A DNA stretch of 5,319 nucleotides from JACPSX01 sp035288405 [NCBI: bacterium] (GTDB lineage: Bacteria > JACPSX01): the NCBI GenBank assembly GCA_035288405.1, contig DATEAK010000261.1, forward strand, positions 1 through 5,319, written 5' to 3'. Positions 1-5,319 of this stretch are shown piece after piece. How positions within the stretch are numbered: the first letter of the stretch is position 1; the number at the start of each line of letters is the position of its first letter. A program made the translations under genes and the position numbers. The notes beneath the pieces are model-generated. The model was not told the DNA's origin, searched no databases, and saw nothing but the letters and a program-made list of their open reading frames with translations.

Positions 1-612
1 TCCTTCGCCATTTTGCTGGTGGCAAGCGGCGCAGTTCTGATTGTAGATTTGCGCTCCCTTTTCCTGCCAAACGAACGCGCTTTTCATCGCCTCTGCGGAC
101 TTCTGTGATGTCGGTTGTGGCGCCGTCTGAGCCGGCGGAGAAGTCTGGGACGCGATGCCGCCGTACGTAGGGGTGTTGGCAAATTGGGGAGGAGGAGTCC
201 ACTGACTGGTCGCGTACCAGATAGCCCAGGCAACGATCGTTAAGAATAAGACCCAGGCCCAGGTCGGAATGGGTGCGGGGGTTTCGGCGCGCAGGGGTTC
301 AAAGTGGACTTCCCCCTCACCTCCGTAAGCATTGACCAGGATGGAGATTTGTCCTTTTACCTCGTCTCCTTCCGATAGGCCGGAGACGGTGATGGCCGGA
401 CCGTTATGGACGAAAAACTTTACTTCCCGGACGCTCACCACATTGCGCTGATCTTTGGCTTCGATCCGCAGAGTGTGATGGCCATCGGAAAGCTTGCTCG
501 TGTCCAGGGAAAATGTTTGAGGAGGGCTGAACTCGGCAAACGGATCGCTCCCGCCGTCCAGGAATACCTTGACCACGACTACGCTATCGCTTGCTCCGCC
601 TGCTTCAGTCAT
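1..612 (-). CDS. Membrane-anchored cytochrome c with N-terminal Ig-like domain, in the ccoP position (partial, C-terminus off window)
   Basis: Probable electron-transfer subunit of the cbb3-like oxidase encoded upstream. The visible 204 residues contain, in order, a beta-rich Ig-like stretch (about 12-70, with the SLDTSKLSDGHHTLRIEAKD signature typical of bacterial Ig repeats), a second shorter Ig-like stretch (about 71-105, starting NGPAITVSGLSEGDEVKG), one membrane segment (about 117-135, Trp/Ile/Leu-rich), a Pro/Thr/Gln-rich linker (138-175), and the start of a cytochrome c domain with the heme-binding motif CAACH at 194-198. The rest lies beyond base 1. The ATG at 610-612 is forced, because an in-frame TGA lies two codons upstream. 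It overlaps the preceding gene by 8 bp (ATGACTGA), implying translational coupling; no good Shine-Dalgarno is seen. Canonical CcoP has an N-terminal membrane domain of its own and two c-heme domains; this N-terminus looks different. The cytochrome c assignment is firm; the role as CcoP substitute is inferred from position. Confidence 0.85.
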   Translation of the reverse strand, partial: MTEAGGASDSVVVVKVFLDGGSDPFAEFSPPQTFSLDTSKLSDGHHTLRIEAKDQRNVVSVREVKFFVHNGPAITVSGLSEGDEVKGQISILVNAYGGEGEVHFEPLRAETPAPIPTWAWVLFLTIVAWAIWYATSQWTPPPQFANTPTYGGIASQTSPPAQTAPQPTSQKSAEAMKSAFVWQEKGAQIYNQNCAACHQQNGEG

Positions 613-814
613 CTTTCAATACGGTCCGCTTGATGTGGTTTTCTTCTTTTTCTCCCGGCTTCACGGTCATGCGCACAGCCAGGAAAAAGACCCAGGCTAC
701 CGCCACGATAAAAATTCCTAAAATTAGGAATTGTCCTGCCCCCGTGCTGGTTTCTGCACCAGGGTGAATTCCATGAGTTAAACCGCCGGCTGCCGTGAGG
801 AGCGCGCTTTCCAT
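605..814 (-). CDS. Small single-TM protein in the ccoQ position of the oxidase operon
   Basis: A 69-residue protein with a short polar/Gly-rich N-terminus (1-27), one membrane helix (about 28-49, QFLILGIFIVAVAWVFFLAV) and a charged tail of about 20 residues rich in Lys and Glu ending KDD. The tail is basic near the membrane, so by the positive-inside rule it is probably cytoplasmic. I do not recognise a named family. CcoQ is also a short one-helix protein between ccoO and ccoP, so an accessory or assembly role in the oxidase is inferred from position and shape only. The ATG at 812-814 is the only sensible start: an in-frame TAA lies three codons upstream and the two codons between are not start codons. 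The upstream Shine-Dalgarno is weak. The stop overlaps the start of the downstream cytochrome c gene by 8 bp, a strong sign that the gene is real and co-translated. Confidence 0.75.
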   Translation of the reverse strand: MESALLTAAGGLTHGIHPGAETSTGAGQFLILGIFIVAVAWVFFLAVRMTVKPGEKEENHIKRTVLKDD

Positions 815-969: not shown

Positions 970-1560
970 TTACTTTCCGGTACCGGTTGCCGTAGTGCCC
1001 AGGACCGGCTGTTTTAGTGCCAGCAGGTAATCCAACAGCGCCAACGCATCGGGAGTTGCAACGACCGCCTTGCCTTTGGGCTTCCATGGATCAGGAACGG
1101 GAACGACCACGTCGCCGGGGCCGGCTTGATCCTTCAGTTGGAAATACCACCAAAAGGAAGGCATGATTGACTCTTTGACTACAGCCCGTGGGTTATACAG
1201 GTGGATCAGTTGCCAGGTTGAGCTTGGCTGGCGATTTCCGATATTGATCAGGTCCGGCCCCGTCCTCTCGGTCCCCAAGAGTTGGGGAGTGCTGTAGGCG
1301 TAATCTCCTGCGGCCGAGGGCCGCCCAAAGACCTGGTCCGCAGGAATCGGTCGTACCTGCTGGGTATGACAGTAAGAGCACCCCTCGGATACGTAGATTT
1401 CCCGTCCCCTTTGTGCAGTCGAGCTGAAAGGCATCAGACCGGGAGTGGGGGGAACCCGGCTTGCCTCGATGGCGGGAAAGACGGCAATGGCCAGGCTCAA
1501 GGCCACGAAGATGAGAAATGACGTAAGGTACAGGAGTCGCGGGTTCGTGTGAAAGTTCAT
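970..1560 (-). CDS. ccoO: cbb3-type cytochrome c oxidase subunit II (CcoO), mono-heme cytochrome c
   Basis: Membrane-anchored cytochrome c that passes electrons to the catalytic subunit CcoN on the periplasmic side. The protein has 196 residues, close to the usual size of about 200. An uncleaved N-terminal membrane anchor spans about 9-30. The heme c motif CSYCH is at 61-65 within the family hallmark GREIYVSEGCSYCHTQQVRP. Further family motifs follow: RTGPDLINIGNR (99-110), HLYNPRAVVKESIMPSF (120-136), where M133 is the likely distal heme ligand, and a C-terminal helix with ALALLDYLLALK (172-183). The ATG at 1558-1560 overlaps the ccoN stop in the sequence ATGA, so the two are translationally coupled; a purine-rich AGGCGG lies about 7 bases upstream. 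The tail after residue 184 is Thr/Gly-rich and low complexity. Confidence 0.96.
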   Translation of the reverse strand: MNFHTNPRLLYLTSFLIFVALSLAIAVFPAIEASRVPPTPGLMPFSSTAQRGREIYVSEGCSYCHTQQVRPIPADQVFGRPSAAGDYAYSTPQLLGTERTGPDLINIGNRQPSSTWQLIHLYNPRAVVKESIMPSFWWYFQLKDQAGPGDVVVPVPDPWKPKGKAVVATPDALALLDYLLALKQPVLGTTATGTGK

Positions 1561-2999
1561 GCTTGTCCGCCTGCTTCCAGCGCCCGAGCGGCTTTCGCGG
1601 CTGGTCTCATATGAAAGAGGTTGTAAGCAAACACCAGGTGCCCCAGGATCATGAGCATTCCGCCCACGGCTCTCCATAACCAGTAGGGAGCCATGGCGGT
1701 CACCGATTGAATAAACGGGTTCTGAGCAATCCACTGAAACCCCTGGATTGTGCCGCCGATTGACAGGGCCACTACGTAAATGGCTAGACCTACGGTGGAC
1801 ATCCAGAAGTGAACCCCCACCGCCTTCACCGGAGGTTCCTTGCCCGTCAAGCGGGGAAGAAGCCCGTAAATTCCCCCCCAGATCAGGAAGGCCACAAAAC
1901 CGTACATGGTGAAGTGAGCATGGCCCACGGTATAGCCGGTCAGGTGCCAGTAGAGGTTTGCGGTACGGAATGCTTCCGCAGTGCCCTGAGCGGAGGCGAT
2001 TCCATAAGAGACGATTCCCACCAGGAGAAACGGCAAAGAGTAACTGCGGCGGATCAGTCCTCCCATGCCCTTCATGGTGAGAAGAAAATTTCCCGTGCCG
2101 GCCCACACGGGGACCATCATCCCGGCGCTGAAGAGAATCGCGATCGTCTGCAAGAGCCAGGGAATGGGGCTGAAAATGTAATGGTGTGTTCCGATGAGGG
2201 TGTAGAAAACCAACTGAGTCCAGAAGCCCAGAACTCCAAGCGCGTACGAGTAAATGGGACGATTTAAAAACAGAGGAAGGAAGTAGTAGGTGAGACCCAC
2301 GGCGAGCGGGGTGAACCACATTCCTACCCCGTTGTGCATGTAGTAGCCTTGGATCACGGTTTGCCCCAATCCGTGCTGATACCAGGGGAGATAAGCAATC
2401 GTTCCTAAAACCAGGGTCCACAGGAAGGCGGAGAGGATGTACCAGTTGGAGATATAAATCTCCTTCATCTTCCGGCGCACAACCGTATTGTAGAAATTGA
2501 TGAGGTGCAGGATCAGTGTGGCCGCAAAGAGCAGGAACAGGGGCCAAACGTACTCCCGATATTCCTGATTGCCGTTGTTGATTCCACTGGCCAGGGCCAG
2601 GATTCCGGCCAGGACCATCACGTTCCAGATCCACAGAGCCGTCTTCGCGAGCCTGATGCTGTACAATTCCGTCTTGGAAGCTCTGGGGACTGCGTACAGG
2701 GCCAGGCCCATCATGGCCAGAGAAGTCCAACCCCAAAAGACCGTGTTCGTGTGAACCGCCCGCAGCCGTCCGAAGGAGAGGAAAGGAGCGTCGAGAAAAT
2801 CCGGGAAGCGGAATTTGAGGGCCACAAGACCGCCGGCCAGAGTACCCACCACGAGCCAGAAAGTCGCCCATCCCAGATACTGGAAGATGATCCGGGTGAG
2901 AACGGGATCTTCCCGCTGTGAGGTTTCCGCAATGACTCGGGCGATCGACTGTTTATAAAGATCTGCTTCTGGAAGGCGCTCGCTGGTTCCCTTCCTCAA
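1557..2999 (-). CDS. ccoN: cbb3-type cytochrome c oxidase subunit I (CcoN), catalytic heme-copper subunit
   Basis: Catalytic inner-membrane subunit that reduces O2 to water at a heme b3/CuB site. From the chosen TTG start the protein is 480 residues, matching the usual 470-490. About 12 hydrophobic helices span residues 36-464. Ligands visible: H83 (AVHTNTVFWGW, low-spin heme b), H222 (YYMHNGVG, CuB), H272-H273 (GTHHYIFSPIPW, CuB), Y266 six residues before H272 (the position of the His-Tyr cross-link in C-type oxidases), and H360 and H362 (VGHAHF, hemes b3 and b). The conserved Tyr argues for an oxidase rather than a NO reductase. No in-frame ATG exists upstream of the first helix; the TTG at 2997-2999 has AGAAGGA 9 bases upstream and lies below a good promoter. 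The same frame stays open to 3428, but that extension overlaps the SCO gene and lacks family sequence. Overlaps ccoO by 4 bp. Confidence 0.95.
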   Translation of the reverse strand: MRKGTSERLPEADLYKQSIARVIAETSQREDPVLTRIIFQYLGWATFWLVVGTLAGGLVALKFRFPDFLDAPFLSFGRLRAVHTNTVFWGWTSLAMMGLALYAVPRASKTELYSIRLAKTALWIWNVMVLAGILALASGINNGNQEYREYVWPLFLLFAATLILHLINFYNTVVRRKMKEIYISNWYILSAFLWTLVLGTIAYLPWYQHGLGQTVIQGYYMHNGVGMWFTPLAVGLTYYFLPLFLNRPIYSYALGVLGFWTQLVFYTLIGTHHYIFSPIPWLLQTIAILFSAGMMVPVWAGTGNFLLTMKGMGGLIRRSYSLPFLLVGIVSYGIASAQGTAEAFRTANLYWHLTGYTVGHAHFTMYGFVAFLIWGGIYGLLPRLTGKEPPVKAVGVHFWMSTVGLAIYVVALSIGGTIQGFQWIAQNPFIQSVTAMAPYWLWRAVGGMLMILGHLVFAYNLFHMRPAAKAARALEAGGQA

Positions 3000-3169: not shown

Positions 3170-3841
3170 TTAGAGAAGCTCGCGGATCCGTTTTTCCAGT
3201 AAGTCGCTTAGAGCGAGCCCCTGCGAGTCTGTTTGTTCCGGCGGAAGGGAGATATACCAGTGCTGCCGTCCCGTCTTGTCGATGAGGTAGACACCGGGAG
3301 TATGCAGGATTTCCCCACCTTCTTTTGGCGAAGGTTCCACCTGGATGAAGTACGCCTTCCAGGTCCTTTCGAGTTCCTTCGGGACGCCGGTCAAGAAATG
3401 CCAAGTTGGAACCTGATTCAGTTGCCACTTCTTGGTGGCTTCAGCCACATCGGTAATCGTGCCGGCCTTCACGTTCACGTTGACTCCTAGGAAAACGACG
3501 GAGTCTCCCCTCTTGCCGAGACTTCGGTAGGTTCTCAGCAAATGCGCGGCGGTGAGCGGACAAACATCCTCGCATTGGGTATCCAAAAAAGTCAGAACGA
3601 CCACTTTGCCGCGCAAGTCTGAAAGGGCCACAGTGGCTCCGTGTTGGTCCACCAGTTGGAAATCTTGGGATGGGCGATCGAGCGTCGTCCCTTGATATAC
3701 CCGATTAGTACCGGGCACCGCCCGGTGTGAACGGATCCACATCAAGGTGATGACAGCGACTGCTCCGGCCAGCAGGAGGAGAAGTACTCCCGTGAGAAAT
3801 TGACGTGGAATCCCGGAACCTTGTTTCAGATGTTTCTCCAT
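3170..3841 (-). CDS. SCO1/SenC family copper chaperone (thioredoxin fold, membrane-anchored)
   Basis: Periplasmic copper chaperone or thiol-disulfide protein used in heme-copper oxidase assembly. The protein has 223 residues: a short basic N-terminus, one membrane anchor (about 14-36), then a thioredoxin-like domain (about 57-223). The copper-binding motif CEDVCP is at 90-95, and the third ligand is H180 in HTPGVYLIDKTG. The segment LSDLRGKVVVLTFLDTQC (73-90) is a typical family beta-strand lead-in. The ATG at 3839-3841 has GGGGTGA ending 4 bases upstream. It lies 170 bp upstream of ccoN on the same strand, consistent with a role in delivering copper to that oxidase, although a separate promoter sits between them. 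No clear promoter or terminator is visible in the 185-bp spacer on its own upstream side (3842-4026). Confidence 0.94.
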   Translation of the reverse strand: MEKHLKQGSGIPRQFLTGVLLLLLAGAVAVITLMWIRSHRAVPGTNRVYQGTTLDRPSQDFQLVDQHGATVALSDLRGKVVVLTFLDTQCEDVCPLTAAHLLRTYRSLGKRGDSVVFLGVNVNVKAGTITDVAEATKKWQLNQVPTWHFLTGVPKELERTWKAYFIQVEPSPKEGGEILHTPGVYLIDKTGRQHWYISLPPEQTDSQGLALSDLLEKRIRELL

Positions 3842-4026: not shown

Positions 4027-4500
4027 CTAACAAATCAATTGTGCTGGACCCGCCAGGCGTTCTGTCTTTGGAGTGTTTGGAGAAAAGTAAAAAAGATGAC
4101 TGGCGCAGCCGCGACGACAGTCACCGCAGCCGAACCGGGGGACGATGACCCCGGCTCCTGGAAGAGATTGAACCCGGCGGTTCAATGTGCATTCCCGGCA
4201 CCGCTTTCCGGGGTACAGATACACTCGTTTGAGACGTGCCTGGGGGGCTGACAGGAGGTAATCAATGTGCCAGTACGGGATTTTGTGCTTTGCCAGGTGG
4301 CGGCTTATCCGTCCCTTCAAGCCCGATAGGGCACTGCCTGTATAGATATAGGTTCCTGCCGGGAAGTGAAACTTGCCGAGGCGACCCACGGTGATATGGC
4401 ACGCAGGTTTCAGTTGGATTAAGAGTTGGTAAGAGCCTGGTCCTGACGTGGTTTTGGGCCAGAGGGCGTTTCCTTGCTTGGGGAAGAGTTCCAGGGGCAT
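4027..4500 (-). CDS. DUF123 / GIY-YIG-type nuclease-like protein (Uri superfamily)
   Basis: The 157-residue protein matches the DUF123 branch of the GIY-YIG superfamily, small predicted endonucleases of unproven cellular role. Visible family blocks: GSYQLLIQL (22-30), VGRLGKFHFPAGTYIYTGSA (38-57, containing the GIY-YIG-like strands GTY and YTG), GLKGRISRHL (60-69, with Arg64 or Arg67 a candidate catalytic Arg), YWHIDYLL (76-83), RECTLNRRV (102-110, with E103 as the likely metal-binding Glu) and FGCGDCRRGCASHLFYF (123-139). Cysteines are frequent in the C-terminal half (101, 104, 125, 128, 132), suggesting a metal site. The ATG at 4498-4500 has AAGGA 5 bases upstream, a strong start. About 18 residues after the last family block form an unremarkable tail. 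It is divergent from the Tim44-like gene and upstream of SCO on the same strand; no functional link to the oxidase is apparent. Confidence 0.85.
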   Translation of the reverse strand: MPLELFPKQGNALWPKTTSGPGSYQLLIQLKPACHITVGRLGKFHFPAGTYIYTGSALSGLKGRISRHLAKHKIPYWHIDYLLSAPQARLKRVYLYPGKRCRECTLNRRVQSLPGAGVIVPRFGCGDCRRGCASHLFYFSPNTPKTERLAGPAQLIC

Positions 4501-4690: not shown

Positions 4691-5319
4691 ATGGGACGCA
4701 GAACACTGTGGCGCCTGATTGCAGTCGTGGCAACATTTCTTTTTTTCTTCGGCGCACTGCAGGTAGAAACCTGGGCTCGGGCGGGTGGTGGCCGCTCCTT
4801 TGGTGGTGGAAGTTCGCGCTCTTATTCTTCACCGAGAGGGAATCGACCAAGTCAGCAAAACGAGTATCGATCGAGCCAGACGCCAAGACAACCTGCGACA
4901 CCGAGCGCTCCAGCGAACCAGCCTTTGGGCGGTGGTGGATTCCTCCGTGGCCTTGCCGGGGGAATCGCAGGAGGCTTGCTGGGTTCGATGCTCTTCAGCA
5001 GCCTGGGATTTGGCGGCGGTTTCGGAGGGATGGGTGGTGGATTCGGAGGAGGTATCGGTCTCATAGAAATTCTATTGTTTGGTGCCATTGTGTTTTGGGT
5101 GGTGTCCTCGATTCGGCGCCGGAGGCAGGAAGCATTGGCCGGAGCTAACGGTGGCCATTACACAACGGGGGCTGATGTGTACCGTGGGGGAGGTGGCTCC
5201 TCCTACGGAAGAGACACGGATACGGGTGTGGAAGAATTGCCGGGGCAGGTGGATCTCGATCGCGGGCTGGCCAAAGTCAGCATCGTCGTACCGAGTTTCG
5301 AAGCCGAGCGCTTTCCGGA
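4691..5319 (+). CDS. Tim44-like domain protein with signal sequence and Gly-rich region (partial, C-terminus off window)
   Basis: The visible 209 residues have the layout of bacterial Tim44-like proteins. A basic N-terminus and hydrophobic segment (about 6-23) form a signal peptide or anchor, with possible cleavage after WARA at 31. A Gly/Ser/Arg-rich stretch follows (GGGRSFGGGSSRSYSS, 32-47), then a Gln/Pro-rich linker to 78, a Gly/Phe-rich hydrophobic region (80-121), a membrane helix (about 122-140) and a basic cluster RRRR at 142-145. The segment from about 188 (LDRGLAKVSIVVPSFEAERF) resembles the entry to the Tim44 domain, but most of that domain lies beyond the window. The ATG at 4691-4693 has a strong AAGGAGA (4678-4684) 6 bases upstream. 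The bacterial family is named after the mitochondrial import factor, but its bacterial role is poorly defined. It is divergent from the DUF123 gene. Confidence 0.82.
   Translation, partial: MGRRTLWRLIAVVATFLFFFGALQVETWARAGGGRSFGGGSSRSYSSPRGNRPSQQNEYRSSQTPRQPATPSAPANQPLGGGGFLRGLAGGIAGGLLGSMLFSSLGFGGGFGGMGGGFGGGIGLIEILLFGAIVFWVVSSIRRRRQEALAGANGGHYTTGADVYRGGGGSSYGRDTDTGVEELPGQVDLDRGLAKVSIVVPSFEAERFP

What the first reader, a model, noticed from the sequence alone, without database searches (positions are those of the whole stretch)
1..612. Oxidase-linked cytochrome c carrying an Ig-like N-terminus predicted to be cytoplasmic
Seen: about 105 residues of Ig-like sequence, one membrane helix (117-135), a Pro/Thr/Gln linker, then CAACH. 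There is no N-terminal signal peptide. Known: c-type heme is attached in the periplasm, so the C-terminal side of the helix must face the periplasm. Inference: with a single helix the Ig-like part faces the cytoplasm, unusual for Ig-like domains and for a subunit in the ccoP position. It may dock a cytoplasmic partner or replace the CcoP N-terminal membrane domain in holding the complex together.
Basis: partly seen in the sequence, partly recalled or inferred. Interest (0 to 1): 0.7.

Follow-up and report, generated by a model that had tools for sequence, protein, structure and literature searches.

The report
Ig-tailed cytochrome c in respiratory oxidases
An oxygen-using respiratory enzyme of little-studied bacteria carries, in place of its usual third subunit, a cytochrome anchored by one membrane helix with an immunoglobulin-like tail that should sit inside the cell; the same kind of cytochrome is found beside two other respiratory enzymes in Thermus-related bacteria.

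Summary
The gene has an Ig-like N-terminus without signal peptide (Big_7, 26.9 bits, cut-off 24.1, residues 7-49 only), one helix, a linker and CAACH. It is cut by the window edge; a Candidatus Tectomicrobia relative gives the whole 292-residue protein in the same ccoN-ccoO-small-protein operon. In Eremiobacterota 24 of 149 genomes match, 23 beside ccoO, among them the cultured Vulcanimicrobium alpinus. There it and canonical CcoP (9 of 149) never share a genome, and CcoH/FixH mostly goes with CcoP.

Of the kin compared, the nearest is not CcoP but the cytochrome c of the Thermus-type bc complex (hhalign 9e-28, 117 columns); a third form lies in NorC-NorB-cytochrome-cd1 operons, as in Oceanithermus profundus. 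In 4 Eremiobacterota the cytochrome c domain sits at the end of CcoO while the Ig-helix protein remains, so the Ig-helix is a module of its own.

Best reading: an Ig-anchored cytochrome of bc type stands where CcoP stands in this cbb3 oxidase, heme outside, Ig part in the cytoplasm as a structural dock. Topology and docking are inferred; the complete Ig fold is not shown.

The parts
1..612 (-). Ig-helix-cytochrome c subunit in the ccoP position, cut by the window edge after 204 residues
   Evidence: full-length 292-residue relative L001:5865-6743
289..585 (-). Ig-like N-terminal part, residues 10-108; Big_7 matches residues 7-49 only; N70-G71-P72, I74-T75 and R108-A109-E110 invariant in 24 aligned rows
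   Evidence: beta strands in low-confidence models
205..264 (-). single membrane helix, residues 117-136, entered by PIPTW (114-118)
   Evidence: model of the relative; hhalign of the family's helix to the CcoP N-terminal helix
67..204 (-). Pro/Thr/Gln-rich linker, residues 137-182; 57% identical to the relative over 139-182, the lowest of the parts compared
19..33 (-). CAACH heme c site, residues 194-198
605..814 (-). 69-residue single-helix protein, CcoQ position, C-terminal NHIKRTVLKDD; overlaps the next gene by 8 bases
   Evidence: (no Pfam family over its cut-off)
970..1560 (-). ccoO-like mono-heme subunit
   Evidence: FixO 1e-33
1557..2999 (-). ccoN-like catalytic subunit (TTG start assumed)
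   Evidence: COX1 5.7e-79; TIGR00780 246 bits against cut-off 583; 85% identical to L001's
3170..3841 (-). SCO1/SenC-like copper protein upstream of ccoN
   Evidence: SCO1-SenC 6e-20

Best explanation
The gene encodes the electron-entry cytochrome c of a divergent cbb3-type oxidase. Its single helix is an uncleaved signal anchor (N-terminus in, C-terminus out). The C-terminal mono-heme domain reaches over the periplasmic face of CcoO/CcoN on a flexible linker and passes electrons from periplasmic carriers to the heme of CcoO and on to CcoN, as CcoP does elsewhere. The Ig-like part lies in the cytoplasm and, with the helix, forms a conserved docking module that holds the cytochrome to the complex. 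The subunit belongs to a family of Ig-anchored cytochromes c also found in the bc complex of Thermaceae and beside NorCB; in the cbb3 line it stands in for CcoP rather than being CcoP. Shown: gene order, architecture, family kinship, no genome shared with CcoP in one phylum, modularity. Inferred: topology, electron entry, docking of the Ig part.
For: Operon ccoN-ccoO-small-Ig gene in window and L001. In Eremiobacterota 24 of 149 genomes have the Ig-helix match: 23 of 24 beside ccoO and the small gene, 22 of 24 beside ccoN, the rest at contig ends. All 22 genomes with a ccoN of this type (50-57% identical) are in that set; the 9 of 149 with FixP_N over cut-off are a different set. FixH in 8 of 9 canonical-CcoP genomes against 2 of 28 Ig genomes; those two are over the cut-off (25.6 and 23.9 bits, cut-off 23) but partial and on contigs other than that of the Ig gene. 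30 cbb3-linked rows lie on one side of a branch, 100/99, in a 45-row tree. Kinship to the bc type: hhalign probability 99.8, E 9e-28, 117 columns. Modularity: in 4 of 24 genomes the Ig-helix protein has no heme site and CcoO carries a second one (Pfam for two of the four). Sequence constraint on the Ig part: 80% identity, dN 0.095, dS 0.493.
Against: No protein was seen in a complex. The charge bias around the helix is small, mean 1.33 against 0.67 K/R in 20 residues. dN/dS does not single out the Ig part: about 0.19 there, 0.15 in the linker (dS 1.74, unreliable), 0.17 overall, 0.10 in CcoO. The helix does look CcoP-like, and TIGR00782 ccoP aligns in register over residues 107-281 of the V. 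alpinus protein (33.5 bits, cut-off 179.95), so descent from CcoP with a swapped N-terminus is not excluded.
Confidence: 0.62

Rival explanations
1. It is a true CcoP by descent whose short cytoplasmic N-terminal segment was replaced by an Ig-like domain.
For: ExxxP[IL]PxW helix similarity to canonical CcoP, 6e-4 and 2e-3 against 0.11 and 0.19 for two controls; the bc-type helix lacks it, 0.21-0.25; FixP_N at E below 1 in 7 of 24 members, best 0.021; TIGR00782 in register over helix and heme in P0010.
Against: The Ig-helix profile matches the bc type over 117 columns at 9e-28; the heme domain of the Tectomicrobia protein scores 98.6 bits with the best bc domain (the second one of L198; median 65.9) against 39.7 with the best of 9 canonical CcoP rows.
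Confidence: 0.22
2. The Ig part is periplasmic, carried across by an unusual N-tail translocation or a re-entrant helix, and touches periplasmic partners like other bacterial Ig domains.
For: Most known bacterial Ig domains are outside (general knowledge); weak charge bias.
Against: About 115 residues with 9-10 K/R and 17-20 D/E before the helix in the window protein and L001, no signal peptide, one helix only, and the heme domain must be outside.
Confidence: 0.06
3. The Ig-helix protein is mainly an assembly or stability factor that replaces CcoH; the cytochrome is a passenger.
For: CcoH/FixH is not matched in 26 of 28 Ig genomes tested; 4 genomes keep the Ig-helix protein without heme; CcoH is needed for active cbb3 oxidase (passage in PMC7558416).
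Against: 20 of 24 A3 rows carry the heme domain; bc-type and nor-type forms exist where no CcoH is expected.
Confidence: 0.1

Closest known systems
Cytochrome c subunit FbcC of the Thermus bc complex (FbcCDFB operon, Mooser et al. 2005 as cited in PMC3764938)
   Same: Short N-terminus without signal peptide, Ig-like part, one helix, linker, heme c domain; profile match over Ig and helix.
   Different: Lies with a 4-helix protein, Rieske and cytochrome b; two heme sites in 7 of 13 rows; lacks the CcoP-like helix entry. That the fetched rows are FbcC rests on gene order, not on a named Thermus record.
CcoP/FixP, third subunit of cbb3 oxidase
   Same: Operon position after ccoN, ccoO and a small one-helix protein; one heme site in the 9 canonical CcoP of Eremiobacterota too; similar helix.
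   Different: FixP_N and TIGR00782 cut-offs not reached; Ig part added; heme domain nearer to the bc type; mostly without CcoH.
Ig-helix-cytochrome c of NorC-NorB-cytochrome cd1 operons in Oceanithermus profundus and three unnamed relatives
   Same: The gene lies between NorB and the cd1 protein in 4 of 4 loci read; E 2.3e-10 to 1.2e-6 with the cbb3-linked profile for 12 such second copies.
   Different: Second half of the Ig part diverged; role there unknown; NorB/NorC named from COX1 and cytochrome c matches plus gene order.

Membership tests
CcoP/FixP | FixP_N domain (PF14715) over its cut-off | tested here: not met
   12.8 bits against 24.9; 7 of 24 members at E below 1, best 0.021
CcoP/FixP | NCBIfam TIGR00782 ccoP over its cut-off | tested here: not met
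   40.1, 33.5 and 40.0 bits for the full-length relatives P0006, P0010, L190 against 179.95
CcoP/FixP | gene beside ccoN and ccoO | tested here: met
   window, L001, 22 of 24 Eremiobacterota (23 of 24 for ccoO), 6 of 6 Deinococcota of this type
CcoP/FixP | delivers electrons to CcoO in the purified enzyme | not testable with these tools
   needs biochemistry
cbb3-type (C-family) oxidase | ccoN and ccoO homologues in one operon | tested here: met
   COX1 5.7e-79 and FixO 1e-33; TIGR00780 and TIGR00781 match but under their cut-offs
Bacterial Ig domain Big_7 (PF17957) | score over cut-off | tested here: met
   26.9 bits for the window's N-terminal 115 residues; 24.0 for the 204 residues, cut-off 24.1. 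Weaker in relatives: 8 of 24 members at E below 1
Bacterial Ig domain Big_7 (PF17957) | complete Ig/fibronectin-like sandwich | tested here: inconclusive
   six strands 12-77, mean pLDDT 56.7; fibronectin-like rows Z 4.2-5.2 over residues up to 71
Thermus-type bc-complex cytochrome c (FbcC) | profile kinship over Ig part and helix | tested here: met
   hhalign 99.8, 9e-28, 117 columns
Thermus-type bc-complex cytochrome c (FbcC) | gene beside Rieske and cytochrome b | tested here: not met
   beside ccoN/ccoO instead; so a sister branch, not an FbcC

The most novel reading that the evidence does not exclude
A cytoplasmic Ig-like dock is shared by the cytochrome c subunits of three respiratory enzymes (bc complex, cbb3 oxidase, NO reductase). 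It would be a common plug that joins these complexes to one another or to a cytoplasmic scaffold, and the cbb3 oxidases of Eremiobacterota, Tectomicrobia and some Deinococcota would have traded CcoP and CcoH for it.
Probability: 0.15. Interest if true: 0.75.

Novelty: new variant of a known kind. Interest (0 to 1): 0.5.

Why it matters
It describes a cbb3 oxidase whose third subunit is kin to a bc-complex cytochrome, and a respiratory cytochrome family with a probable cytoplasmic Ig-like tail, found in three phyla. Because Vulcanimicrobium alpinus and Oceanithermus profundus are cultured, topology, subunit make-up and the role of the Ig part can be tested. It also warns that a search for CcoP by FixP_N will call these oxidases incomplete.

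Tried and rejected
Circular permutation: the Big_7 match lacks profile positions 1-25 and residues 70-95 read like the start of such a domain, so I scanned N-termini of five rows in native and reordered form (window, L001, L073, L077, L091). No Big_7 or Big_13 score rose by more than 0.9 bits and no match reached profile position 1. Not supported, not excluded.

A solved relative: the 20-row profile gave best E 0.031 (a lectin) and the Thermus-type N-terminus 0.017 (a hypothetical protein). Foldseek with the 114-residue model: 434 matches at E up to 10, none at 0.001. VIA-align gave Z up to 6.2 (Hsp70 domains) and 5.8; no fold is claimed from these.

FixP_N in whole genomes at E up to 1 is mostly noise: 84 of 149 genomes match, 9 over the cut-off; I used only those 9.

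Literature (listings; passages of eight papers read: PMC9758169, PMC8357290, PMC7558416, PMC6431628, PMC3764938, PMC3111992, PMC5748679, PMC4429474): cbb3 + Ig-like + CcoP gave 2 papers, cbb3 + immunoglobulin-like + cytochrome c oxidase 5, Eremiobacterota + cbb3 5, Tectomicrobia + cbb3 3, Thermus thermophilus + FbcC + bc1 1, at least three of Thermus thermophilus/bc complex/Mooser/menaquinol 12; a wider Thermus bc1 search gave 109, ten listed, none read. In the passages read no such subunit is described. The Mooser papers of 2005 and 2006 were seen only as references and may describe the FbcC N-terminus.

Dropped rows and parts not read: L094, L095 and L096 (contig-end fragments) are not in A3. 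L201 and L207 fell out of the 45-row tree because the motif filter picked a wrong frame or none. Start codons of the relatives were picked by a script as the ones nearest the small gene's stop, so the tight coupling is in part built in. Of 65 Deinococcota genomes at 2.4e-16 to 5.9e-24 I read the surroundings of 15; of 12 with a second copy, 4. The other 46 of the 52 matching genomes (E 2e-9 or worse) were not read one by one.

Full report
What is there. On the minus strand the window holds a SCO1-like gene (3841-3170), a ccoN-like gene (2999-1557), a ccoO-like gene (1560-970), a 69-residue one-helix protein (814-605) and the gene in question, 612 to the window edge. The last reads 204 residues. 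Upstream of its ATG, with one codon between, is an in-frame TGA, and further stops follow upstream. Pfam finds Big_7 over residues 7-49, Cytochrom_C from 184, and FixP_N far below its cut-off over 110-134. In 24 of 25 loci a start codon lies within 8 bases of the small gene's stop; the script picked the nearest start, so this is in part built in. In 45 rows no 19-residue window before the helix reaches a mean hydropathy of 1.6 (highest 1.46); the helix itself is Trp-rich and scores 1.18 or more.

The whole protein. The one genome-collection scan returned one relative, 78% identical, in a Candidatus Tectomicrobia MAG (JACPSX010000177.1). It is 292 residues: Ig-like part, helix, linker, one heme c domain, in the same operon. 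Between window and relative the Ig part (10-108) is 80% identical with dN 0.095 and dS 0.493; the linker (139-182) 57%, dN 0.267, dS 1.742; the whole 78%, dN 0.118, dS 0.710. The Ig part is thus constrained, but the dN/dS ratio (about 0.19) is no lower than that of the linker (0.15, with an unreliable dS) or of CcoO (0.10).

How often. A three-row Ig-helix profile matched 24 of 149 genomes of one phylum. Contig C1 of one of them, 3,508,363 bases, has exactly the chromosome length of Vulcanimicrobium alpinus WC8-2, an Eremiobacterota isolate (passage in PMC9758169; NCBI files it under Vulcanimicrobiota). The paper's passages mention its cbb3 oxidase; the words ccoP, ccoN and Ig-like do not occur in the main text. 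In 23 of 24 genomes the gene lies beside ccoO and the small gene, in 22 of 24 beside ccoN; the others are contig ends. The small proteins end in motifs close to GE..P.HPK..IL..DR. A search with the Tectomicrobia ccoN found 29 of 149 genomes: 22 at 50-57% identity, all in the Ig set, and 7 at 34-39%, all in the FixP_N set. FixP_N passes its cut-off in 9 of 149, none of them Ig genomes. FixH matches 8 of those 9 and 2 of 28 Ig genomes tested (Tectomicrobia, 21 Eremiobacterota, 6 Deinococcota; 3 Eremiobacterota not tested); the two are over the cut-off but partial and on other contigs than the Ig gene.

A natural experiment. In 4 of the 24 Eremiobacterota genomes (G174-G177) the Ig-helix protein ends soon after the helix (147-151 residues, no CxxCH), while the CcoO frame carries a second CxxCH and ends like the missing heme domain. 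Pfam, run on two of the four, gives FixO plus Cytochrome_CBB3 (9e-17 and 2.6e-15). The Ig-helix part is thus kept although it no longer carries the heme. That argues for a role of its own in the complex.

Kin elsewhere. A 20-row profile searched in 386 genomes (relatives of the Tectomicrobia genome, kinship not told) matched 52 at E up to 1e-3, but only 6 below 1e-16. Three of these (G020, G315, G453) have an Ig-helix-cytochrome c gene before a 4-helix protein, a Rieske protein and, where the region read reaches that far (G020), cytochrome b (Rieske 2.9e-8 and Cytochrome_B 2.4e-29). In that phylum 75 of 111 genomes match. The G544 contig of 2,303,940 bases is the chromosome of Oceanithermus profundus by length (passage in PMC3111992), so the phylum is Deinococcota. 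Six genomes match at 3e-51 or better and carry the cbb3 operon (6 of 6 read). Sixty-five match at 2.4e-16 to 5.9e-24; of 15 read, 11 lie with Rieske and cytochrome b, three as said above, and O. profundus with the 4-helix protein. This order fits the FbcCDFB operon of Thermus (passage in PMC3764938). Twelve genomes have a second, weaker copy of similar coverage (2.3e-10 to 1.2e-6; two with a stop in the frame); in the 4 read it lies between NorB-like and cytochrome-cd1 genes (Cytochrom_D1 5.6e-115, COX1 5.3e-59).

One family. In a 45-row tree of the Ig-helix part the 30 cbb3-linked rows are one side of a branch (100/99); the window and its Tectomicrobia relative group with the six Deinococcota rows (98/97). 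hhalign joins the cbb3-linked and bc-linked Ig-helix profiles over 117 columns at 9e-28. The heme domain of the Tectomicrobia protein scores 126 bits with a separate cytochrome c of the same genome, 98.6 with the best bc domain (median 65.9) and 39.7 with the best of 9 canonical CcoP. Against this, the helix of the cbb3-linked rows resembles the CcoP helix (6e-4 and 2e-3; small protein 0.19, CcoO 0.11), while the bc helix does not (0.21, 0.25). This may be convergence on the same site of CcoN or a trace of CcoP descent.

Topology and fold. Heme c is attached outside (established knowledge), there is one helix and no signal peptide, so the Ig-like part should be inside; K/R around the helix lean the same way, weakly. 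The fold is not settled: two-row models have mean pLDDT 45.0 and 56.7, strands in the Ig part, and structural matches at Z 6.2 or below.

Verdict. The best reading is an Ig-anchored cytochrome c of the bc/cbb3/Nor family standing in for CcoP. It is a new variant of known respiratory subunits; cytoplasmic docking is the attractive but untested part.

Noticed in passing
window 605-814: The small one-helix protein in the CcoQ position has no Pfam family over its cut-off; its Eremiobacterota and (two seen) Deinococcota counterparts share a C-terminal H[PI]K motif. Probably an undescribed small subunit.
   Followed up: partly
L074:4732-5736, L077:4830-5828, and the CcoO genes of L079 and L080: CcoO with a fused C-terminal cytochrome c domain in four Eremiobacterota, with the Ig-helix protein left without heme.
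   Followed up: yes
L201:2895-7721; also L203, L209, L211: NorC-NorB-Ig cytochrome-cytochrome cd1 gene order in Deinococcota, including Oceanithermus profundus, whose genome paper says nitrite is its only denitrification product.
   Followed up: partly
L198, L199, L200, L202, L204, L205, L208: Seven of 13 bc-linked rows carry two CxxCH sites in one chain, so heme domains seem to have been added or swapped repeatedly.
   Followed up: no
window 4027-4500 (minus): DUF123 protein (2.2e-23), with a weak GIY-YIG match below its cut-off.
   Followed up: no
window 4691-5317 (plus): Gly-rich protein cut by the window edge, without a Pfam family over its cut-off.
   Followed up: no
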